The notes under the pieces were generated by a model. The model saw nothing but the letters and a program-made list of their open reading frames with translations, was not told the origin of the DNA and made no database searches. Positions 11,222 through 21,818 of a DNA stretch of 21,818 bases are shown piece after piece. Made by a program: the position numbers and the translations under genes. Where the stretch lies: positions 1 through 21,818 of IMG/VR virus record IMGVR_UViG_3300030060_005255; one strand, written 5' to 3'. Numbering within the stretch: the first letter of the stretch is position 1; every line of letters starts with the position of its first letter. Source of the stretch: a virus.

Positions 11222-11476
11222 ATGAAGATGAAAGCCAAAGGCATGAAAAAAGGCGGCATGATGAAAGCCAAGGGCATGAAAAAGGGCGGCATGATGAAGT
11301 CTAAAGGCTATGCCAAGGGCGGTGCTATGAAAGCGAAGGGCATGGCCAAAGGCGGAATGATGAAGACAAAGGGCATGGCCATGGGCGGCGCTATGAAAAC
11401 TAAAGGCGGCGCGGGCGGCGGCAAAAAGAAAATGCGTCCGCCAAACAAAAAGAAGAGTGGTTTGTTTGGCAGATAA
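11222..11476 (+). CDS. Met/Lys/Gly-rich 11-residue repeat protein
   Basis: Eighty-four residues, almost entirely Lys, Met, Gly and Ala. After MKM come five complete copies of an 11-residue unit with consensus K-[AST]-K-G-[MY]-[KA]-[KM]-G-G-[MA]-M and a sixth degraded copy, then a GGGKKKMRPPNKKK linker and a SGLFGR end. It has no Asp or Glu, so it is extremely basic. I remember similar Lys/Gly/Met strings in marine phages at this position, never characterised. Possible roles are condensing DNA inside the head, a membrane-active or metal-binding peptide; none is shown. Five bases separate a GAGG-type ribosome site from the ATG. The stop directly abuts the next ATG. Confidence 0.72.
   Translation: MKMKAKGMKKGGMMKAKGMKKGGMMKSKGYAKGGAMKAKGMAKGGMMKTKGMAMGGAMKTKGGAGGGKKKMRPPNKKKSGLFGR
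11231..11428 (+). repeat. Tandem 33-base repeat, six units, in frame
   Basis: Units begin at 11231, 11264, 11297, 11330, 11363 and 11396. Units 1 and 2 differ at only two of 33 bases, both third codon positions, indicating a recent duplication. Later units are progressively more divergent and the sixth is degenerate. All changes preserve the reading frame and the Lys/Gly/Met pattern. Confidence 0.9.
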
Positions 11477-12166
11477 ATGGCGTATTTGCAAAGTAACATC
11501 CCGCACTTCAAGTGCTGGGTGCGCAGGGAGTACACGCATAATCACCAGAAATACCACGGCGAATTTATTCACGCCATGGCTATTGCTGTCACGACCATGC
11601 CGACGAGGTGCCTGAGCTTTCAGTTAATTTTTACTGGAGCAGAAACCTACGACGAAGATGACGAAGCCAACGTGCATGGCGGCGCCATGTGGGCCCGTAT
11701 GCCTATTACGGCTTTGGTCGGCGATACTCCTTTAGAGGACTGGCCAGAGCCCATGCCTGTTTGGGCGGCTCAACCGTGGGACTGCAGCTCGCATCATCAC
11801 GCGGTTTATGTGCTCGATAGAGCAACGCCCTGCCCATGGCTCGCCATAATCGATGGAGAAATGTACCCCGCCAAATACTACTTTACAGTGGATTATGCTG
11901 AGAACGAAATCGCTGACGATCCTGCGCAGCACAAGCAAAGTCACGTTCTGGAGTTGTTGGATGCGGGCCCATGGACTGGAAATATTGTCGCCTTACCCAA
12001 TAATCGGGTGCGGGTCACTCACCCTGCTTGGTTTGAAACCGGAGAGGGCGCTCCAGACTTTAGACCCTCTCAACATATCCATTATTCGAAATCTGATTTA
12101 GACTACACGCTTGACGTAAATCAGATTTTTAACAACCTTTACGCAGGTGCGGACGATGGCGACTAG
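11477..12166 (+). CDS. Conserved His-rich phage protein, function unknown
   Basis: A 229-residue protein that I recognise as highly conserved among uncultured marine phages but cannot assign. It holds 14 histidines, many clustered: EYTHNHQKYHGEFIH (18-32), CSSHHHAVYVLD (103-114), HKQSH (152-156) and QHIHYS (199-204). Other notable segments are GGAMWARMPITALVGDTP (68-85), CPWLAIIDGEMYPAKYYFTVDY (119-140) and TGEGAPDFRPSQ (188-199). The sequence looks globular and enzyme-like or metal-binding rather than a fibrous structural protein. It sits between the small basic genes and the neck genes. The ATG directly follows the previous stop without a clear ribosome site, so re-initiation is likely. The end overlaps the next gene by 11 bases. 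Confidence 0.72.
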   Translation: MAYLQSNIPHFKCWVRREYTHNHQKYHGEFIHAMAIAVTTMPTRCLSFQLIFTGAETYDEDDEANVHGGAMWARMPITALVGDTPLEDWPEPMPVWAAQPWDCSSHHHAVYVLDRATPCPWLAIIDGEMYPAKYYFTVDYAENEIADDPAQHKQSHVLELLDAGPWTGNIVALPNNRVRVTHPAWFETGEGAPDFRPSQHIHYSKSDLDYTLDVNQIFNNLYAGADDGD

Positions 12167-12851
12167 CGGCAGCAGGGATTTCGAACTTGACGTGGCTGAC
12201 TATGTAGAGGAAGCCTTCGAACGCTGCGGGCTGGAGCTGCGAACTGGTTATGATCTACAGACCGCTCAACGGTCTTTGAACCTGATGCTGGCAGAGTGGG
12301 CCAATCGCGGACTTAATCAGTGGACCATCAATCAGAAAACAATAAGTGCAGTAAAGGACACTATTGTATACACGATTGATACAACTGATCCCACGTCCGT
12401 CATTGATGTGCTGGATGTGTTCGTGCGCGAAACGGTACAGGGTTCTGTCACCGATATACCGCTCAGCAAGCTATCACGAGCTGAGTACGCGCATATAGCA
12501 ACCAAGTCGACTACAGGCAAGCCCAATCAATATTTCGTTGACAAGCAAATTTCTCCGACCATCAGCATTTACCCTGCGCCAGACAAAAACTCGGCTTACG
12601 TTCTGCACCTCAATGTTCTCAGCAGGATAGAAGACGCTGACGCAGGGGCGAACACTATGGATGTGCCTTTTCGCTTTTTCCCATGCCTAGCCGCTGGCCT
12701 TGCTTATTACATAGCCCTCAAAAGAGCACCGGAAAAAGTGCCGCTGTTGAAACAACTTTACGAAGAGGAGTTCGAGCGGGCGCTGTCGCAGGATCAAGCG
12801 AGAGCGAGCTTCCGTGTTGCTCCTGACCTCACGATCTATCGGATTGCCTGA
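12156..12851 (+). CDS. Head-to-tail adaptor, P22 gp4-like
   Basis: Probably the first ring that binds under the portal after packaging and closes the head. The N-terminal helices FELDVADYVEEAFERCGLE (8-26) and DLQTAQRSLNLMLAEWANRGLNQWTI (30-55) fit the helical bundle of neck adaptor proteins. A beta region with DVLDVFVRE follows, then KPNQYFVDKQISPTISIYPAP, and a C-terminal helix VPLLKQLYEEEFERALSQDQ. I chose ATG 12156 (231 residues) over a GTG nine bases upstream because the following MATSGSRDF start is typical. It overlaps the previous gene by 11 bases and shares a base with the next. The gp4 comparison is from pattern and gene order. Confidence 0.75.
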   Translation: MATSGSRDFELDVADYVEEAFERCGLELRTGYDLQTAQRSLNLMLAEWANRGLNQWTINQKTISAVKDTIVYTIDTTDPTSVIDVLDVFVRETVQGSVTDIPLSKLSRAEYAHIATKSTTGKPNQYFVDKQISPTISIYPAPDKNSAYVLHLNVLSRIEDADAGANTMDVPFRFFPCLAAGLAYYIALKRAPEKVPLLKQLYEEEFERALSQDQARASFRVAPDLTIYRIA

Positions 12852-13174
12852 TGACTTTTGCTGCCGGTAAAAACGCATACGGGATTTGTGACATCACCGG
12901 ATTCCGGTACAAGCTGAAGGATATGCGTAAAACTTGGAATGGTTTGCTTGTGGGTCCAGATCAATGGTCGCCTAAAGAACCGCAGATCAAACCGAATCCG
13001 ATACAAGCAGATCCCGAGGCAGTTCGCGACGCTCGAATAGACCCATCAAGTAACGGAAATGATGGTAACTTTTTTATGGTGTATACAAATGTGGGCACAG
13101 GTATTTTAGGCACACAACTTACATCCTTTGCTATTACGTCCTCTGTGGGAAATGTTGAGGTGACCATCACATGA
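12851..13174 (+). CDS. Small neck-region protein with a decayed zinc-ribbon-like motif
   Basis: One hundred and seven residues. The N-terminal segment AYGICDITGFRYKLKDMRKTWNG (9-31) then LLVGPDQW matches a recurrent phage motif whose usual form is CDxCGFRYxxxxLxxxWxGLxVC, a zinc-ribbon-like knuckle. Here only Cys13 remains: the second Cys of the first pair is Thr16 and the later Cys is Gly35. The fold may persist without metal. The C-terminal half (FMVYTNVGTGILG, then TSFAITSSVGNVEVTIT) looks like beta strands. It overlaps both neighbours (one base upstream, four downstream) inside the adaptor genes, so a minor neck or tail role is likely. Confidence 0.7.
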   Translation: MTFAAGKNAYGICDITGFRYKLKDMRKTWNGLLVGPDQWSPKEPQIKPNPIQADPEAVRDARIDPSSNGNDGNFFMVYTNVGTGILGTQLTSFAITSSVGNVEVTIT

Positions 13175-13818
13175 GTTTTACGCTGTCATCGCTCAAAACA
13201 ACGATCCAAGATTATCTGCAGGTAGATGAGACCACCTTCAACAATAATCTGGATCGATTCATCAAAGAGAGCGAAAACCGTATATTCAAGCTGGTGCAGT
13301 TGCCCGAGCAGCGGAGAAATGTCACAGGTAATACGACCACAAGCAAAAGGTTTCTGGCCACACCATCAGACTTTTTCGCGCCGTTTTCCCTAGCGATTAT
13401 CACTGGTGGTAAATATCACTACTTACTTTATAAGCATCCCAGCTTTATGAAGGAGTTTAATTCGAGCACCACTGCGACAGGCAGACCGAAGTATTATTCT
13501 CTTTTTGATGACACCGCTTTCGAGTTGAGCCCCGTGCCAGACTCGGGTTATGACGTGGAGCTGCATTACTTGTATAAACCGCCGTCTCTTACGGTGGGTT
13601 CTGATTCGGGCAGCACGCTTCTCTCTACCGACCATCCAGATCCGTTGCTGTACGGTGCGTTAGTCGAAGGCGCTGTATTTCTCAAGGAGCCTCCAGATGT
13701 CATCCAGACGTTTGAGGCAAGATTTAAAGAAGGGATTGCGAGGATGAAAAACGTGTCCGAGGGGCGTGCTACTCGCGATGAGTATCGGTTCGATTTGTTG
13801 AGGATGGGTGTGAGCTAG
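13171..13818 (+). CDS. Phage adaptor / tail-tube-like connector protein
   Basis: A 215-residue neck protein candidate. The N-terminus holds a helix with TTFNNNLDRFIKESENRIFKLVQLPEQRRN (20-49). A strand-rich region with RFLATPSDFFAPFSLAI (60-76), YKHPSFMKEF (87-96) and YDVELHYLYKPPSL (126-139) leads to a final helical part, LLYGALVEGAVFLKEPPDV then FEARFKEGIARMKNV. This order, with a middle 'LP.DF....SL' strand and a closing helix 'YEERFKEAL', is what I remember of SU10/T7 gp11-type adaptor proteins in marine podoviruses. It lies after the gp4-like gene, as expected for a second connector ring. It overlaps the preceding gene by four bases (ATGA). Confidence 0.75.
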   Translation: MSFTLSSLKTTIQDYLQVDETTFNNNLDRFIKESENRIFKLVQLPEQRRNVTGNTTTSKRFLATPSDFFAPFSLAIITGGKYHYLLYKHPSFMKEFNSSTTATGRPKYYSLFDDTAFELSPVPDSGYDVELHYLYKPPSLTVGSDSGSTLLSTDHPDPLLYGALVEGAVFLKEPPDVIQTFEARFKEGIARMKNVSEGRATRDEYRFDLLRMGVS

Positions 13819-15270: not shown

Positions 15271-17166
15271 ATGCCACTTACAAACCTAGAATTTAAGGCA
15301 GGGATCGATAAAGAGGCCACGGACTACTCTTCCAAGGGAGGTTGGGTGGATGGCAACTTGGTTAGATTCCGCAAAAGCCGCGTCGAAAAAATTGGCGGCT
15401 GGATTAAGCTGGGCACTAATGCTTTCCTTGGCGTTGCCCGCGCTCTGCATAGTTGGATTGAGCTGGGCGGCGTTCGGTATCTTGGACTCGGCACTACGTT
15501 CAAATACTACATCGAGTCGGGCGATCTCTATTACGATGTAACTCCGATTCGCTCCACTACTTCAGCGGGCGATGTCACTTTTGCCGCAACGAACGGCTCC
15601 TCCACAATTACGGTCACCGATACAAGTCACGGAGCAGTCAACGATGACTTTGTGACCTTCAGTGGCGCCGCGTCTCTTGGTGGTAATGTGACGGCCGCTG
15701 TGCTAAATCAAGAGTATCAAATTGTACTCGTAACAGACGGTAATACTTATACGATTACAGCAAAGGATACCTCTGGCGCAACCATCACCGCCAGCGCCTC
15801 TGACTCTGGTAACGGCGGATCGAGCACCGTAGGAACGTATCAAATTAATGTCGGGCTAGATGTGTATGTGCAGGCTACAGGATGGGGTGCGGGAACGTGG
15901 GGCGCTGGCACTTGGGGTTCAACAAGTGCAATCGCAAACACCGGCCAGCTCCGATTATGGACACATGACAACTTTGGCGAAAACCTGATTATAAACCCAC
16001 GCGGTGGCGGTATTTTTAGATGGCTAGAGAGTGGAGGCTTGTCTACTCGTGCCGTGGCGCTTTCTGGCGTCTCTGGTGCAGATCTTGTGCCGACAGTCGG
16101 CCTGCAAGTGATTACGTCAGAGATTGATCGTCATTTGATTGTATTAGGTGCCGATCCGATCTCTGGCGCTTCTCGGTCAGGATCGATTGATCCGATGCTA
16201 ATTGCGTTTTCGGATGGTGAAAACGAATTAGATTTTAATCCCACCGCCACAAATTCTGCTGGCTCTGTAAGAATTTCAGCAGGGTCTTTCATCATAGGTG
16301 CAATAAAAAGTCGGCAAGAGATTTTAATCTGGACGGACACCAGCTTGTATTCGATGCAGTTTATTGGGCCTCCATTGACTTTTGCGGTAAATCTCGTCAA
16401 TGAGGGAGCTGGATTGGTGGGACCGAAGGCTGCTGTAACAGCCCCGATTGGCGTCTTCTTCGCAAGCAAAACGGGCTTCTTTGTCTACACTGGCGCAGTA
16501 AAAAAACTGCCGTGTACCGTACAGGAATACGTTTTTAATGATCTAGATCTGGGTCAAGCGTTCAAATGCCACATGGGTCTGAACAGTGAGTATGGAGAAA
16601 TGTGGTTTTTCTATCCGAGCAAAGAGGATGGCACGCAAGAAATATCTCGCTACGTCATTTATAACTACGAGGAAAACCATTGGAGCATTGGGTCGTTAGT
16701 TCGTTACGCATGGCTAGATGCAGGAATTGAAGACGTTCCTTTTGCTACTGCGACCGATAATTCTCAGCAATTTGTTTTCCAACACGAGGTTGGTTACGAC
16801 AATCTAAATGCGGGAATGTCTAATGTGTTCATTGAATCTGGAGACATTGACATCAGCGCTGGCGAGAATTTCAGCTTTGTGAAAAAGGTGATACCGGATG
16901 TACGCTTTATTACAGACACTGGCATCAGCAATAATCCAGCGGTCAATTTTGTTTTGAAAAGCCGCGATTTTCCTAGTGACTCTTTGACAACAGAAAGCAC
17001 ATCTCAGATATTGAGTGACACACAGTTTAAAAATTTGAGAAGCAGATCACGCCAGATTGTGGTGCGATTTGAGTCAGATGATGATTTGAGCACAACTGAC
17101 GCAACAGGTTACAAATGGCGTCTCGGCACTACCCGTGTCGATTTGCAACCTAGTGGACGTCGATAA
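15271..17166 (+). CDS. Tail nozzle / hub protein (T7 gp12 or P22 gp10-like)
   Basis: A 631-residue protein, the largest in the tail block, probably the tube extending below the adaptors. The N-terminal part GIDKEATDYSSKGGWVDGNLVRFRK (11-35) is the usual opening of this family. Residues 92-190 are an extra beta domain (strands VTFAATNGSSTITVTD, DFVTFSG and YTITAKDTSG) inserted into it. A double Trp-Gly repeat WGAGTWGAGTWG (205-216) follows. Then come blade-like strands (GQLRLWTHDNFGENLIIN, GIFRWLESGG, REILIWTDTSLYSMQFIG) suggesting a beta propeller, as in gp10/gp12 nozzle proteins. The C-terminal third looks beta sandwich. It overlaps the next gene by one base. Which of the two families applies cannot be settled by eye. 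Confidence 0.78.
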   Translation: MPLTNLEFKAGIDKEATDYSSKGGWVDGNLVRFRKSRVEKIGGWIKLGTNAFLGVARALHSWIELGGVRYLGLGTTFKYYIESGDLYYDVTPIRSTTSAGDVTFAATNGSSTITVTDTSHGAVNDDFVTFSGAASLGGNVTAAVLNQEYQIVLVTDGNTYTITAKDTSGATITASASDSGNGGSSTVGTYQINVGLDVYVQATGWGAGTWGAGTWGSTSAIANTGQLRLWTHDNFGENLIINPRGGGIFRWLESGGLSTRAVALSGVSGADLVPTVGLQVITSEIDRHLIVLGADPISGASRSGSIDPMLIAFSDGENELDFNPTATNSAGSVRISAGSFIIGAIKSRQEILIWTDTSLYSMQFIGPPLTFAVNLVNEGAGLVGPKAAVTAPIGVFFASKTGFFVYTGAVKKLPCTVQEYVFNDLDLGQAFKCHMGLNSEYGEMWFFYPSKEDGTQEISRYVIYNYEENHWSIGSLVRYAWLDAGIEDVPFATATDNSQQFVFQHEVGYDNLNAGMSNVFIESGDIDISAGENFSFVKKVIPDVRFITDTGISNNPAVNFVLKSRDFPSDSLTTESTSQILSDTQFKNLRSRSRQIVVRFESDDDLSTTDATGYKWRLGTTRVDLQPSGRR

Positions 17167-17480
17167 TGAGCAGATTACTGCCGACGCGACTGCCGCTTGC
17201 AACGGGCGCGGAGGGCGTCGAAGCAGAGACATTCAACAGGCTTGTTCGCATTCTCGAAATCAACCTCGGAGCAGTGGATTTCACCATCTCTCCACACTTC
17301 AACTCGACCGAGATCTCTCAGCAGCAATTTGCCACGGGAGCCATTATCTTTAATACTACGCTTAGCATTCATCAGGCGTTCGACGGCACTCAGTTTCGAA
17401 ACCTGTATGAGCATCAAAGCTACCCTAGCGGAGTCGGAGTGACGTCCGCAGTGGGGTCTGTAACGGTGAGCACGCCATGA
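17166..17480 (+). CDS. Small protein downstream of the nozzle, function unknown
   Basis: One hundred and four residues. The first half has FNRLVRILEINLGAVDFT (23-40), a helix and strand; the second half is beta-like with GAIIFNTTLSIHQAFDGTQFRNLYEH (58-83) and a SAVGSVTVST end. It starts in the stop of the nozzle gene and its stop lies inside the next start (ATGA), so it is tightly coupled to both. I recall comparable short proteins at this spot in marine phages without a function. A small tail-tip or linker protein is possible. Confidence 0.66.
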   Translation: MSRLLPTRLPLATGAEGVEAETFNRLVRILEINLGAVDFTISPHFNSTEISQQQFATGAIIFNTTLSIHQAFDGTQFRNLYEHQSYPSGVGVTSAVGSVTVSTP

Positions 17481-19288
17481 ATACATTTTTACAACAGAGA
17501 ATTGCTTCCCTCACGGGGATGCCTATGGGAATGGCCGAAGGCGGTCCAGTAGATGCTGACCTACTCGACACGTCGGATCCCGAGGTGCAGCAGGGATTAG
17601 CAGAAAGCGCGATGATGCCACAGGATCCTAACGAGGCTCTGCGTCAGACTATTGAGGGTCTGATGGGCGCGGCCCAAATGGCGGAAGATCCGACAGACCG
17701 ACGAGCTGCGGAGGGCTTGGCCGAAGCTGCAATGGTCGGTTCTCAAGCGCCAATGGCTGACATGGCTATCCAATTGGCTCAAGCGGGCAGGGGCCCAGAT
17801 ACTCAGCTTGCGCACGTCGCGCCCGGTGAGGTCATCTTGCCTCCCCAAGTCATGGCGGATGCTGAGTTCGAAAAGATTGTTGGCGACCGCTTTGCTGAGC
17901 TGGACATGAATCCAGAGGAGTATGTGGTGGGCGCAGGCATTGCCTCGCTTAATCCGGTCACTGGTCTTGAAGAGTTTGGTTTTCTGAAAAAGGCTTTTAA
18001 AAGCGTAAAAAAAGTAGTTAAGAAAGTAGTCAAGCCGGTGGCGCAAGTCGCGCAATTTATACCCGGCCCTTGGCAACTTCCTGCCGCCTACGTCTCCAAG
18101 GGTTTTAATGTCTACGATGCATTTAAATCTGGCAATCCTCTCGGCGGCATAGCGGCGCTTGGGATGCCAATGCCCGGCGGTAGCGGTGGTGGCTTTCAAA
18201 TACCGGGTTTCGGTGGCGGCACCTTCTCCTTTCCTTCTGGCGGGGCTCCTAATATGAGTGGCGGAATTTCTGATCTTTTGAGTGGTGCTTATGATTATGT
18301 GTTTGATGCGGGTGATGGCAAAGGTCTGCTGACCAACTTGGGACAAACCTTTGGTATCGGAGGCGGTAGTAAGACCGCTGGCGATATTTTAGTTGAGGCC
18401 GTAAAAAACAATCCAGAAATTCAAAAATCAATTTTAGAAGGTGCGCAAGCAGGGCTTACCACAGAAGAAATTTTATCCAAATTGCAACAATCTGGTGTTA
18501 TCAGCCCCTACGCTGACAAAGGATTTTTTGGCTCTATCGGAGAGTTTGTTTTTGCGGGTGACGATGACAAGAATGCTTTGCAAAACCTCCTCAGCGGCTA
18601 CAATCAATATCAGCAAATGACGCAGGGCGGTCAGCAGGGACAGCAATTCATGCCACAGCAGGGCGGTGGCGGCTCTAATCTGATGTCGATGCTGGGTCTT
18701 GGCGGTCAAGGCGGCATGGGGATTGGGGGACTGCTGGGCACAGCGGGCTTGGCTGGCTTGGTCGGCAAGCTGGCGTATGACGAAGCCAAGGATCGCAAAG
18801 GCGTACCTCTGACTCCGCTGACGCAGATGAACGCAATGGGTCGGTACAACATAGAGCAGGAGATTGCTCGCCGCACTGGCCAGCCTAGCCCGAATCCAGT
18901 TGAGTTTGGCTTGTTGCCCGCTGGCACTATCCCATCGCTGTCAGGAGGCGCCCCTGCGCCCATGCAGGCGAGATATGGCGGGCCAGTCATGGCCTTTGCG
19001 GAAGGTGGAGACGTAGATCAAGAGGTCTTCGTCCGCATGACCGGCGACATAGACGGCAAGGGCACGGAAATCAGCGATGACATTCCAGCCATGTTGTCAG
19101 ACGGTGAGTTTGTGATGACGGGCCGAGCTGTTCGAGGCGCGGGCGCCTTTGATATGAACAACGACAACGGCATTATCACGCTCAAGCCAGCGAATGGAGA
19201 ATCCAGAGAGAAAGGCATCGACCTGATGTACAAGATGATGGACCTTTTCTCAGAGTTCGCGACTGCACCGCAGGCGAAGGGGGCATAA
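17477..19288 (+). CDS. Putative internal virion (ejection) protein with cationic membrane-like segment
   Basis: A 603-residue Gly/Gln/Ala-rich protein. The order is: MGMAEGGPVD near the N-terminus (17-26); an Ala-rich helical region (35-105); HVAPGEVILPPQVMADAEF (113-131); a strikingly cationic amphipathic stretch KKAFKSVKKVVKKVVK (171-186) running into the hydrophobic FIPGPWQLPAAYV (194-206); Gly-rich repeats (230-262); a helical middle (300-345); a Gln/Gly linker; a hydrophobic Gly/Leu/Ala segment (400-433); and a C-terminal domain YGGPVMAFAEGGDVDQE (500-516) with DIPAMLSDGEFVMTGRAVRGAGAF (535-558). I recall that last block from many phage structural proteins. Cationic plus hydrophobic segments fit a protein ejected with the DNA that enters the cell envelope, as P22 gp7, gp16 and gp20 do. 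This role is inferred. Confidence 0.7.
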   Translation: MNTFLQQRIASLTGMPMGMAEGGPVDADLLDTSDPEVQQGLAESAMMPQDPNEALRQTIEGLMGAAQMAEDPTDRRAAEGLAEAAMVGSQAPMADMAIQLAQAGRGPDTQLAHVAPGEVILPPQVMADAEFEKIVGDRFAELDMNPEEYVVGAGIASLNPVTGLEEFGFLKKAFKSVKKVVKKVVKPVAQVAQFIPGPWQLPAAYVSKGFNVYDAFKSGNPLGGIAALGMPMPGGSGGGFQIPGFGGGTFSFPSGGAPNMSGGISDLLSGAYDYVFDAGDGKGLLTNLGQTFGIGGGSKTAGDILVEAVKNNPEIQKSILEGAQAGLTTEEILSKLQQSGVISPYADKGFFGSIGEFVFAGDDDKNALQNLLSGYNQYQQMTQGGQQGQQFMPQQGGGGSNLMSMLGLGGQGGMGIGGLLGTAGLAGLVGKLAYDEAKDRKGVPLTPLTQMNAMGRYNIEQEIARRTGQPSPNPVEFGLLPAGTIPSLSGGAPAPMQARYGGPVMAFAEGGDVDQEVFVRMTGDIDGKGTEISDDIPAMLSDGEFVMTGRAVRGAGAFDMNNDNGIITLKPANGESREKGIDLMYKMMDLFSEFATAPQAKGA

Positions 19289-19289
19289 C

Positions 19290-21818
19290 ATGAGTCAGCA
19301 ACCCGGAACCCCCTACTCTTTCCCCGATGGCACACCCGAGATTCTAGATCTTCCCTACGGCCCCGCCATGGGTCAGTACTTTGACGCAGAAGGCAGACCG
19401 GGAAGTTATGTTGATCTTGGTTACGGTTCTCAAAGGACGGGTTTCCAGCCTCAAGGGACCGGCGGTGGTCAAGGGTCGCAACTTCCTGATTGGGTAGTAC
19501 CCCCACCGCCCGGCTCCATGAACACGATGATGGTAAGCTCCGTGACAAATCCGTACACGGGCGAAACGGTTACGGTGCCTTCTGGCGGTTATTCTGTGAA
19601 TGATGAAGCCGCAAGAGCGGCGGCAGAGAATCCACAGCCAGCTCAACCGCCCGCTACTCAAGATCAAGTGGCGCCCCCGCAGGTTAGCAACGAGGCGCCT
19701 TTTGTCAGCGGCATAGCACGCCGCGATGTCTCGATGGACCCCATCATTCAGCAGTTGCTGTTTGGGGATGCCACGCAGACTGGCTTCTTGCCCGGCGCTT
19801 TTCGAGCAGCAGAGCGCACGTTCTTTGACGATCAGGGTAGGCCAATCGTCATACCGCAGGCCATTGCTGGACTCACTGCCGACCAACAGCTCGCCGCCGA
19901 TATTGCGCGGTCTCAGGTCGGTCAACAGCTTCCATTTCTGAGTGCGGCAGAGCAGGCGTACGGACGCGGACTGGCGGCTCTTACCAGCGGACTTGACGAG
20001 CAGAGAGATTTCGCTCGCGGCGCCTTGACGGATTATTCCAGTGAGCTGCAGGAAGCATTGGGTTTAGGACGCAGAGCTGCTGGCAGATTTGGCGAAGATC
20101 TGGGGCAAATTGAAGGTCTGGCAGAACAGGCAGAAAGAGATCTTGGTCGTAGGGTTGAAGATGCCACTGGCACCTTGCGCGGCGGTGTTTCTACGCTGGA
20201 GCAACAGCTCGATAGGGCTTTGGGTAGAGAGCAGCTCGCAATTGATGACTTCAGCGGTGATCTTGGTGGCTCTCTCGCAGAGCGAAGGCGTGCTATTTCT
20301 GGATTACAGCCGGGCCTTGGGCGGTCTGAGCAGGCGCTTCGATCTGCAATCGGTGGGCTTGATCGCCGCTTAGGAGCGTCAGAACTCGGCTCAGCCAGAG
20401 GGGTCAGTGATCTCGGATCTAGGCTGAGTGAGTCGGAGGCCAGACTGAGAGCGACCACGGGTGGCTTTGATCCAAGGATGACAGGAGAGTTTTACGATCC
20501 CTTCGAGCAGGCGGTGGTGCAGCAAACCATCGAAGATGTTCTGGAGGGTGCTGATCAAGCGGACATCGCACAGCGGGCGCGAGACATCCAGACAGGTGGT
20601 GAGTCTGCATTTGGCTCCAGAGCCAGACTGACGGCCGAGGAGCGAAGAGAAGCGCTGGGTCGCGGTCTGGCAGACAGAATATCTGCAATTCGCTCTGGAG
20701 GCTTCCAGCGGGCGCAGCAGACGGCGCTTGGTGAGTTTGCTCGTCAACAGGCCGCGCAAAGACAGGCCGCAACAGGATTGGCGTCTTTGGCTGGTCAACG
20801 CTTTGGCGCAGGGGAGCAACTGGCTACGAGACTCGGCACAGGCGCTCAGCAAAGATTTGGTGCAGGCAGCAGGTTGGCGGATCAAATTGGACAGCGTGCT
20901 CAACTTGAAAGCGGTGCAGGTGAGCGTATGGCGGGCGCATTGAGCGACGCCGCACAACAAAGGCTTGCCGCGCAACAACGATTCAGTAGCCAGATTGCGG
21001 GCTTGGCTGGTCAAAGATTTGGCGCCGCCAAAGATTTGACAGGTCAGCAGATGTCTGCGGCTTCGGCACAACAGGCTGCATCACAGGCACGACAGGCCAC
21101 CCTCGGTCAAACAGCCGCACAGAGACTCGCCTCTCAGCAACAACTGGCTCAACAGCAGAGTAATCTTGCCAATCAACGCATGGCTGCACAGCAGAATTAT
21201 TCAAATATGTTAGGTCAACAAGCACAGTTGCGGCAGGGCGCTCAAACTCAGTTTGGTCAGCAGATGACGGGGTTAGGTCAGAACGTAGCGGCGGCAGGTG
21301 CTCAGGACGTGGCAAGCTTGCAGGGTATTGGCGGACAACAGCAGGCTCTAAATCAGGCTCAGCTCGATGCGCAGAGGAATGCTTTGTTGCAGGCTCAGCA
21401 GGCACCGATGCAACAATATCAAAGCCTATTGCCTTTCGTTCAGCTTGCCGGACAGCAAACTGGTCCAAGCCAGATAGGTACAGAGTTCGCCCCTATGCCG
21501 AGCGCGTTGCAGGCAGGCTTGGGTGCTGGTCTGGCAACACTCGGAGCCTTGGGCAACTTCTTTGGCCAAGGACAACAGGCGGCTATGCAGCAGCAAGCGC
21601 TGGATCAGGGCCAGCAGGCGCTGAACATACAAGCTCAGCAAGCTGGGGTAACCCCTCCGCCACCCGCAAGTAATCAAATAGATTCTCTGACACAATTAGC
21701 ACAAGCAGGATTCCAGCTATTCCCACCACAAGGGCAACAGCAGGAGATCCCTAATTTTGCACCGTATCTGCCACAACTTCCCGAGAACACTCCAAACTTC
21801 GCGCCTTACTTGCCCGGT
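19290..21818 (+). CDS. Large Ala/Gln-rich internal virion (ejection) protein candidate, 18-residue repeats, 3' end cut off
   Basis: An open frame from ATG 19290 to the window edge, 843 codons without a stop. After a Pro/Gly/Gln-rich N-terminus (1-145) and a segment with FDDQGRPIVIPQAIAGL (178-194), residues 224-385 form nine 18-residue helical repeats. A conserved non-repetitive core follows (about 393-471, with GEFYDPFEQAVVQQTIEDVL, then FGSRARLTAEERREALGRGL), then twelve more 18-residue Ala/Gln repeats (485-700). A Gly/Leu/Ala-rich hydrophobic segment (ALQAGLGAGLATLGALGNFF, 738-757) and a Pro/Gln tail with NFAPYLP twice end the visible part. I recall the core from marine phage structural proteins. 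Long helical Ala/Gln build and position fit an ejected conduit protein in the style of P22 gp20 or T7 gp15/gp16; a fibre is the alternative. The start is one base after the previous stop. Confidence 0.8.
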   Translation, partial: MSQQPGTPYSFPDGTPEILDLPYGPAMGQYFDAEGRPGSYVDLGYGSQRTGFQPQGTGGGQGSQLPDWVVPPPPGSMNTMMVSSVTNPYTGETVTVPSGGYSVNDEAARAAAENPQPAQPPATQDQVAPPQVSNEAPFVSGIARRDVSMDPIIQQLLFGDATQTGFLPGAFRAAERTFFDDQGRPIVIPQAIAGLTADQQLAADIARSQVGQQLPFLSAAEQAYGRGLAALTSGLDEQRDFARGALTDYSSELQEALGLGRRAAGRFGEDLGQIEGLAEQAERDLGRRVEDATGTLRGGVSTLEQQLDRALGREQLAIDDFSGDLGGSLAERRRAISGLQPGLGRSEQALRSAIGGLDRRLGASELGSARGVSDLGSRLSESEARLRATTGGFDPRMTGEFYDPFEQAVVQQTIEDVLEGADQADIAQRARDIQTGGESAFGSRARLTAEERREALGRGLADRISAIRSGGFQRAQQTALGEFARQQAAQRQAATGLASLAGQRFGAGEQLATRLGTGAQQRFGAGSRLADQIGQRAQLESGAGERMAGALSDAAQQRLAAQQRFSSQIAGLAGQRFGAAKDLTGQQMSAASAQQAASQARQATLGQTAAQRLASQQQLAQQQSNLANQRMAAQQNYSNMLGQQAQLRQGAQTQFGQQMTGLGQNVAAAGAQDVASLQGIGGQQQALNQAQLDAQRNALLQAQQAPMQQYQSLLPFVQLAGQQTGPSQIGTEFAPMPSALQAGLGAGLATLGALGNFFGQGQQAAMQQQALDQGQQALNIQAQQAGVTPPPPASNQIDSLTQLAQAGFQLFPPQGQQQEIPNFAPYLPQLPENTPNFAPYLPG
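19959..20444 (+). repeat. Protein-level 18-residue repeat array 1 (nine units, 54 bases each)
   Basis: Units start at residues 224, 242, 260, 278, 296, 314, 332, 350 and 368 of the last gene. In every unit position 4 is Gly or Ala, position 8 is Leu, Phe or Tyr, and position 12 is Leu or Val. Position 5 is Leu, Ile, Val or Ala in eight of nine, and position 2 is often Arg. DNA identity between units is low, so the repeat is old. Confidence 0.75.
20742..21389 (+). repeat. Protein-level 18-residue repeat array 2 (twelve units, 54 bases each)
   Basis: Units start at residues 485 to 683 in steps of 18. Position 5 is Ala in ten of twelve units, position 17 is Ala in nine and Gly in two, position 13 is mostly Leu, Ile or Met, and several units open with QR and a hydrophobic residue. 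The best-preserved opening is QRFGA at residues 503, 521 and 575 (20796, 20850, 21012). DNA between the 20787 and 21003 copies is still visibly similar over about 24 bases. Confidence 0.75.
21750..21815 (+). repeat. Duplicated octapeptide PNFAPYLP encoded by different codons
   Basis: The octapeptide occurs at 21750-21773 and again at 21792-21815, separated by QLPENT. All eight codons differ between the copies while every amino acid is identical. The array may continue beyond the window edge. Confidence 0.85.

What the first reader, a model, noticed from the sequence alone, without database searches (positions are those of the whole stretch)
19959..20444. Nine-unit 18-residue helical repeat in the last virion protein (array 1)
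Laying the translation out in rows of 18 from residue 224 puts small residues (Gly/Ala) in column 4, Leu/Phe/Tyr in column 8 and Leu/Val in column 12 in all nine rows, with an aliphatic residue in column 5 in most. Eighteen residues are exactly five turns of a straight alpha helix (3.6 per turn), unlike heptads (3.5) or hendecads (3.67) that supercoil. The same face would stay aligned for about 160 residues, suiting a long straight helix packed into a tube or sheet. A phage ejection conduit built this way would be an unusual, possibly undescribed architecture.
Basis: partly seen in the sequence, partly recalled or inferred. Interest (0 to 1): 0.85.

Follow-up and report, generated by a model that had tools for sequence, protein, structure and literature searches.

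The report
Phage protein hairpin with matched arms
A structural protein of uncultured short-tailed phages carries two distant helical repeat arrays that lengthen and shorten together, 18 amino acids at a time and almost to the residue in 139 relatives, which shows that they are the two arms of one long straight helical hairpin, probably part of the machinery that carries phage DNA into the cell.

Summary
The 18-residue repeat is real and at the stated place (residues 224-385; z = 12 at period 18; helical period 3.61). Comparing relatives shows what it is. A second 18-residue array (about residues 478-693) lies beyond a conserved segment. In 139 distinct relatives from uncultured-virus contigs and a few metagenome-assembled genomes, both arrays change length together, from -126 to +162 residues, while the segment between the anchors stays at 30 residues. 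Counting a 1-2 residue linker difference, 137 of 139 match exactly and 2 are off by one. Some relatives differ by 18n+7, again in both arms. Paired insertions sit at mirrored distances from the invariant GGESAFGSRARL motif. Array 1 is therefore one arm of a long antiparallel helical hairpin (about 35 nm in the window, 16-59 nm across the family), not a lone helix. Gene order (SU10-like portal and adaptors, nozzle, then this gene and two more large genes) and weak matches to PHROG 4287, 'DNA ejection protein', suggest an ejection protein; a conduit role is inferred. It is not the last gene of the block. Known parallels: chemoreceptor hairpins with symmetric heptad indels, 18/5 coiled coils, 11/18-residue tape measure repeats, N4 gp51. 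The model is low-confidence; no oligomer was tested.

The parts
19290..21818 (+). gene of the hairpin protein (P0001, 843 aa in the window, cut by the window end; 873 aa in L001)
19734..19940 (+). conserved N-terminal block, residues 149-217 (MDPIIQQLLFG...AAERTFFDDQGRPIVIP...ARSQVG), before the base of arm 1
   Evidence: invariant columns in A1 and A5; HMM block b1
19959..20444 (+). array 1: nine 18-residue units, residues 224-385, first (Leu-striped) arm of the hairpin
   Evidence: length covariation
20448..20513 (+). linker, residues 387-408 (RATTGGFDPRMTGEFYDPFEQA), a break in the helix; holds all but two of the one- or two-residue length differences between the arms
   Evidence: helix break in the model
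20514..20594 (+). tip-side helix of arm 1, residues 409-435 (VVQQTIEDVLEGADQADIAQRARDIQT); anchor-to-anchor distance constant at 30 residues
   Evidence: helix in the model
20595..20630 (+). hairpin apex, residues 436-447 (GGESAFGSRARL), nearly invariant turn motif
   Evidence: mirrored indels place the apex at residue 437; modelled turn at the same motif; invariant columns
20721..21368 (+). array 2: about twelve 18-residue rows, residues 478-693, Ala/Gly/Gln-rich second arm
   Evidence: 18-residue harmonics, columns, lockstep length
21390..21560 (+). conserved C-terminal block, residues 701-757 (QAQQAPMQQYQSLLPF...ALQAGLGAGLATLGALGNF), with a Gly-rich hydrophobic segment; the part that matches PHROG 4287 in relatives
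17477..19288 (+). upstream neighbour P0002 (603 aa), with a C-terminal motif shared with tape measure proteins; same place in cultured relatives
15271..17166 (+). nozzle / P22 gp10-like 'stabilization' protein P0003, marks a short-tailed phage

Best explanation
The protein is an internal virion (ejection) protein of an SU10-like short-tailed phage, built around a very long straight antiparallel helical hairpin. Array 1 runs out from a conserved N-terminal block, the chain turns at GGESAFGSRARL (about residue 437), and array 2 runs back to a conserved C-terminal block with a Gly-rich hydrophobic segment. Both arms have 3.6 residues per turn (18/5), so one face stays aligned along the rod. Because the arms pack in register, length changes persist only when both arms change equally at the same distance from the tip, in 18-residue units or, more rarely, with an extra 7-residue step. 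Shown by sequence comparison: the periodicity, the matched arm lengths, the mirrored indels and the apex. Inferred: that the arms pack within one chain, that several hairpins form a bundle or tube, and that this lies in the trans-envelope DNA conduit, whose length the hairpin would set.
For: Arm lengths match in 139/139 relatives over -126 to +162 residues with a constant 30-residue tip; after linker correction 137/139 are equal to the residue. There are 15 distinct arm-2 lengths, hence at least 14 changes on any tree, and 37 on a quick tree of the non-repeat blocks. Gap positions are mirrored: in 34 pairs sharing no sequence, t2-t1 has SD 8.1 residues against 39.6 for random placement (0 of 20,000 simulations); Spearman 0.60 for antiparallel, -0.08 for parallel; apex at residue 437. 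L016 and L029, at 91-94% DNA identity over most of their alignment, differ by one 108-base gap in each arm. The AF2 model puts a turn at GGESAFGSRARL between long helices. Lengths of neighbouring proteins do not follow arm length (|rho| <= 0.22). Cultured relatives in the same gene place have short hairpins, also nearly matched: DSL-LC04 47/104 and HTVC027P 41/96 residues against 203/262 in the window. Ejection role: PHROG 4287 'DNA ejection protein' in 26 of 56 relatives and nearly full length in DSL-LC04; gene order.
Against: The AF2 models are weak (mean pLDDT 47.6 and 57.7, pTM 0.17 and 0.25), so packing of the arms is not shown by structure. PHROG 4287 does not match the window protein itself, rings in two of 14 control cellular genomes, and part of its score may come from Ala/Gln-rich composition. 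No fold match in PDB; best viral match E = 4.6e-3. The same length data would arise if arm 1 of one subunit packed against arm 2 of another. The mirrored-gap pairs are not all phylogenetically independent, and many share one gap position.
Confidence: 0.62

Rival explanations
1. The same hairpin serves inside the capsid as a static internal core or DNA-organising scaffold on the portal, and is not ejected as a conduit.
For: Arm lengths of 16-59 nm are also of the order of a capsid radius or diameter; in N4, gp51 is seen as a helical hairpin on the portal wing in full virions (PMC12633501).
Against: In N4 that hairpin disappears from empty virions and its DEV counterpart is a tube after ejection (PMC12633501); PHROG 4287 is named DNA ejection protein.
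Confidence: 0.2
2. A tape-measure-like protein: the arrays measure the length of a tail tube, as 11/18-residue repeats do in long-tailed phages.
For: Tape measure proteins carry 11- and 18-residue spacings and change length in such units (PMC3271669, PMC5099701); the upstream protein P0002 carries a motif of tape measure PHROGs.
Against: No tail tube, sheath or long-tail gene was found among the window proteins scanned; portal, adaptors and nozzle are of SU10/short-tail type. I recall no tape measure with two arms that change in lockstep about a turn.
Confidence: 0.08
3. An external fibre or tail needle: a trimer of long helical hairpins projecting from the tail, whose length tunes reach to the receptor.
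For: Elongated helical trimers occur in phage needles (general knowledge); arm length varies while neighbouring proteins do not follow it.
Against: Gene place between the nozzle/P0002 and two large downstream genes matches the ejection cassette of cultured relatives; no fibre or needle family matched P0001.
Confidence: 0.08
4. The arms do not touch each other in one chain; array 1 of one subunit packs against array 2 of a neighbour in a domain-swapped or sheet-like assembly.
For: Equal lengths and mirrored gaps follow from any antiparallel in-register pairing, within or between chains.
Against: A short conserved turn motif at the mirror point and a modelled turn there make the intrachain hairpin the simpler reading.
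Confidence: 0.15

Closest known systems
Cytoplasmic hairpin of bacterial chemoreceptors (MCP), length classes by symmetric heptad insertions/deletions (PMC5907407, citing Alexander and Zhulin)
   Same: Long antiparallel helical hairpin with a strongly conserved tip; length varies by symmetric indels in the two arms, so relatives fall into discrete classes.
   Different: MCP units are heptads (7 residues, left-handed supercoil) and the protein is a cellular signalling receptor; here units are 18 residues (18/5, straight), the protein is a phage structural protein, and the length range is wide (-126 to +162 residues per arm). No homology was found.
Ejection proteins of short-tailed phages: N4 gp51 / DEV gp72, T7 gp15 (PMC12633501, PMC8954989)
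   Same: N4 gp51 is seen as an alpha-helical hairpin beside the portal wing in virions; the counterpart forms a helical periplasmic tube after ejection; T7 gp15 forms a tube about 20 nm long.
   Different: No sequence match found; 18-residue repeats with lockstep arm lengths are, to my knowledge, not described for them.
PHROG 4287 'DNA ejection protein' and cultured syntenic proteins (DSL-LC04 294 aa, HTVC027P gp83, Roseobacter phage CRP-901 gp33)
   Same: Gene place after the nozzle/tape-measure-motif protein, similar C-terminal block, tip motif GAFGG[ST]R in DSL-LC04 and CRP-901, and nearly matched short arms in DSL-LC04 and HTVC027P.
   Different: The window protein has about nine more 18-residue units in each arm and does not itself reach the PHROG threshold.
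Siphophage tape measure proteins with 11- or 11-11-18-residue repeats (PMC3271669, PMC5099701)
   Same: Phage virion helix with 11/18-residue spacing and length changes by units.
   Different: Single array marked by Trp/Phe and linked to tail length; no paired second arm described in the passages read; no long tail here.
18/5 coiled coils (7+7+4 stutter; PMC4786415)
   Same: Eighteen residues over five turns, nearly straight helices.
   Different: There the 18/5 step is described as a delocalised stutter; here it is an array of nine to eighteen consecutive units in an antiparallel pair.

Membership tests
Antiparallel helical hairpin with symmetric indels (MCP-like architecture, not homology) | Arm lengths vary together about a fixed tip | tested here: met
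   139/139 relatives, tip constant at 30 residues; 137/139 exact after linker correction
Antiparallel helical hairpin with symmetric indels (MCP-like architecture, not homology) | Indels at mirrored distances from the tip | tested here: met
   SD of t2-t1 8.1 against 39.6 for random placement; antiparallel rho 0.60, parallel -0.08
Antiparallel helical hairpin with symmetric indels (MCP-like architecture, not homology) | Solved or confident model structure showing the two arms packed | tested here: inconclusive
   AF2 mean pLDDT 57.7, pTM 0.25; helices and turn in the expected places only
18/5 straight coiled coil | 3.60 residues per turn in both arms | tested here: met
   median best period 3.609 (arm 1, 72 sequences) and 3.596 (arm 2, 120 sequences)
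18/5 straight coiled coil | Knobs-into-holes packing with a partner helix | not testable with these tools
   needs a structure
PHROG 4287 DNA ejection protein | Profile match of the window protein | tested here: not met
   no match at E 0.01 nor E 1
PHROG 4287 DNA ejection protein | Profile match of close relatives and syntenic cultured proteins | tested here: met
   26 of 56 relatives, best 9.1e-09; DSL-LC04 6.9e-09 over residues 10-288 of 294; composition bias possible
Podophage ejection proteins (T7 gp15 / N4 gp51 type) | In the virion and released with the genome | not testable with these tools
   needs virion proteomics before and after release, as done for SU10 (PMC9509320)
Podophage ejection proteins (T7 gp15 / N4 gp51 type) | Gene in the cassette after the tail/nozzle genes, followed by other large virion genes | tested here: met
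   two large genes of about 450-500 and 770-900 aa follow in the five relatives laid out; same order in DSL-LC04
Tape measure protein of long-tailed phages | Tail tube and long tail present | tested here: inconclusive
   among the window proteins scanned, only SU10-like portal/adaptor and nozzle types and no tail tube were found, but not every ORF was scanned and the record is a fragment

The most novel reading that the evidence does not exclude
A modular, length-quantised molecular rod: a large group of uncultured short-tailed phages tunes the length of its DNA-ejection conduit (about 16 to 59 nm) by adding or removing mirrored pairs of straight 18-residue coiled-coil units, in effect a double-sided tape measure for crossing host envelopes of different thickness.
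Probability: 0.27. Interest if true: 0.82.

Novelty: new variant of a known kind. Interest (0 to 1): 0.62.

Why it matters
It gives a structural solution (antiparallel in-register hairpin, apex, unit size) for a protein without known structure from sequence arithmetic alone, in a family with over 500 relatives in public viral contigs. It offers a natural series of lengths in which an ejection-type rod varies almost fourfold while neighbouring proteins do not follow it, so the open question of what sets the length of a podophage trans-envelope conduit becomes testable. It also provides natural templates for straight antiparallel coiled coils extendable in 18-residue steps, and an evolutionary puzzle: two distant indels that must occur together.

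Tried and rejected
(1) Fourier peak at exactly 18 residues: absent; the signal lies in harmonics. A first version of that script timed out. (2) AF2 on a mixed-length alignment (A1): pLDDT 47.6, not used. (3) Foldseek of the second model: no PDB match; viral matches E >= 4.6e-3, among them three weak 'internal virion protein' matches at E 0.8-9.7, treated as chance. (4) Sequence search of solved structures: nothing below E = 0.18. (5) Pfam: no credible match. (6) tblastn of P0001 in cultured phages: none; L107 gave only an E = 1 match; relatives in cultured phages were found by gene order instead. (7) Length of neighbouring proteins as a partner ruler: no correlation. (8) Recent DNA-level duplication: no tandem repeats in the window gene, two short ones in L006. 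(9) CRP-901 gp33 has an 18-residue array but its arms looked unequal by eye and were not measured. (10) Genome collection: only four loci, from metagenome-assembled genomes.

Full report
What was checked. The window is a 21,818-base IMG/VR virus record. The finding lies in an ORF at 19290-21818 on the + strand, 843 residues before the window ends; a 97% identical relative, L001, completes it to 873 residues. Against shuffles the column agreement is z = 12.0 for a period of 18, with the expected echoes at 9, 27 and 36 and little elsewhere; hydrophobicity peaks at 3.61 residues per turn. No DNA tandem repeat is left.

What kind of phage. The window proteins that were scanned include a large terminase subunit, an SU10-type portal, a major head protein, two SU10-type adaptor proteins and a nozzle or P22 gp10-like protein. 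This indicates a short-tailed phage; no tail tube was found among those scanned. Nozzle relatives occur in cultured phages such as DSL-LC04, CRP-901 and HTVC027P. Order in the window: nozzle, a 104-residue protein, P0002 with a motif of tape measure families, then P0001. In the five relatives laid out, two more large genes follow (about 450-500 and 770-900 residues), so P0001 is not the last gene of the block. DSL-LC04 has the same arrangement, ending in a 'DNA transfer protein'.

The key result. A search of viral contigs with P0001 gave 34 relatives; alignment queries matched 561, 549 and 161 candidate stretches, of which the best 80 each were kept; four more came from metagenome-assembled genomes. 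Profile anchors were placed before array 1, on both sides of the conserved middle, and after array 2. In 139 distinct relatives the two arrays change length together: -126/-126, -119/-119, -108/-108, -101/-101, -90/-90, -83/-83, -72/-72, -54/-54, -36/-36, -29/-29, -18/-18, 0/0, 18/18, 36/36 and 162/162 residues relative to the window, apart from small offsets of -1 to +2 in arm 1. The middle stays at 30 residues throughout. All but two of the offsets lie in a linker just before the middle; with it counted, 137 of 139 relatives match exactly and two differ by one. In 41 relatives the change is 18n+7, in both arms. Fifteen distinct arm-2 lengths mean at least 14 changes on any tree; a quick tree of the non-repeat blocks needs 37. 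Lengths of the neighbouring proteins do not follow arm length.

Orientation. If the arms pack antiparallel about the middle, paired indels must lie at equal distances from the turn. They do: over 34 pairs that share no sequence, the difference of the two distances has SD 8.1 residues, where random placement gives 39.6 (0 of 20,000 simulations as tight); the antiparallel rank correlation is 0.60 and the parallel one -0.08. Many of these pairs share one gap position, so they are not all independent. The implied mirror point is residue 437, inside GGESAFGSRARL, a nearly invariant motif. The clearest case is L016 against L029: DNA identity is 91-94% over most of the aligned length (87% in one stretch), and within the hairpin they differ by exactly 108 bases in each arm at mirrored places. 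The AF2 model of a short relative, made from 56 sequences, has helices at 65-110, 139-168, 183-238 and 242-327 and a turn at 169-182, the same motif. Its confidence is low (pLDDT 57.7, pTM 0.25), so it is only consistent with the hairpin.

Straightness and size. The best helical period is 3.609 in arm 1 and 3.596 in arm 2 across relatives, i.e. 18/5, between heptads (3.5) and hendecads (3.67); PMC4786415 gives about 3.63 for an ideal straight helix and lists 18 residues over 5 turns among known periodicities. At 0.15 nm per residue the arms are about 35 nm in the window and 16 to 59 nm across the family (arithmetic). Array 1 is Leu-striped and charged; array 2 is Ala/Gly/Gln-rich.

Function. 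PHROG 4287, 'DNA ejection protein', matches 26 of 56 relatives, best 9.1e-09, and covers nearly the whole syntenic protein of DSL-LC04, whose short arms are also nearly matched (47/104 against 203/262 in the window). hhalign links the family profile to DSL-LC04 and HTVC027P in the C-terminal block. Against this, the window protein itself is not matched, and the profile rings in two of 14 control genomes, so composition may help the score. N4 gp51, an ejection protein, is a helical hairpin beside the portal in virions and has a tube-forming counterpart in DEV (PMC12633501); T7 gp15 forms a tube about 20 nm long (PMC8954989); SU10 releases five ejection proteins (PMC9509320). The most likely role is therefore an ejection protein whose hairpins line or stiffen the trans-envelope conduit. 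That step is inference.

Comparison with the known. Symmetric insertions in both arms of a helical hairpin are textbook for chemoreceptors, in heptads (PMC5907407). Eleven- and 18-residue spacings are known in tape measure proteins (PMC3271669, PMC5099701). The literature searches made here did not turn up 18-residue units paired across a hairpin in a phage protein, but the library holds only openly licensed papers. The finding is thus a new variant of known kinds, with unusually clean sequence evidence.

Confidence. Hairpin with in-register antiparallel arms: about 0.9. Ejection or internal virion protein: about 0.7. Hairpin length sets conduit length: about 0.3.

Noticed in passing
window 17477-19288: P0002 ends in PAMLSDGEFVMTGRAVRGAG, a motif shared with tape measure PHROGs and with the syntenic proteins of DSL-LC04 and HTVC027P, although these phages look short-tailed.
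   Followed up: partly
window 11222-11476: Small low-complexity basic ORF made of Lys/Met/Gly repeats (KAKGMKKGGMM).
   Followed up: no
window 12147-12851 and 13171-13818: Two different SU10-type adaptor proteins in one gene block.
   Followed up: no
L254:12392-13777 (Roseobacter phage CRP-901 gp33): Syntenic protein with the GAFGGSR tip motif and its own 18-residue array (RFGAEDVMRG...), apparently with arms of unequal make-up; a possible counter-example or a different hairpin.
   Followed up: partly
L164, L159, L029 and other relatives, N-terminal to the conserved block: The N-terminal region before the conserved block is very variable in length (about 20 to 780 residues) and Pro-rich in the two examples read in full (L144, L164).
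   Followed up: no
relatives with arm change 18n+7 (e.g. L144, L107, L122): Extra 7 residues in both arms, mirrored about the tip, suggesting that 18 = 7 + 11 and that sub-steps are allowed if paired.
   Followed up: partly
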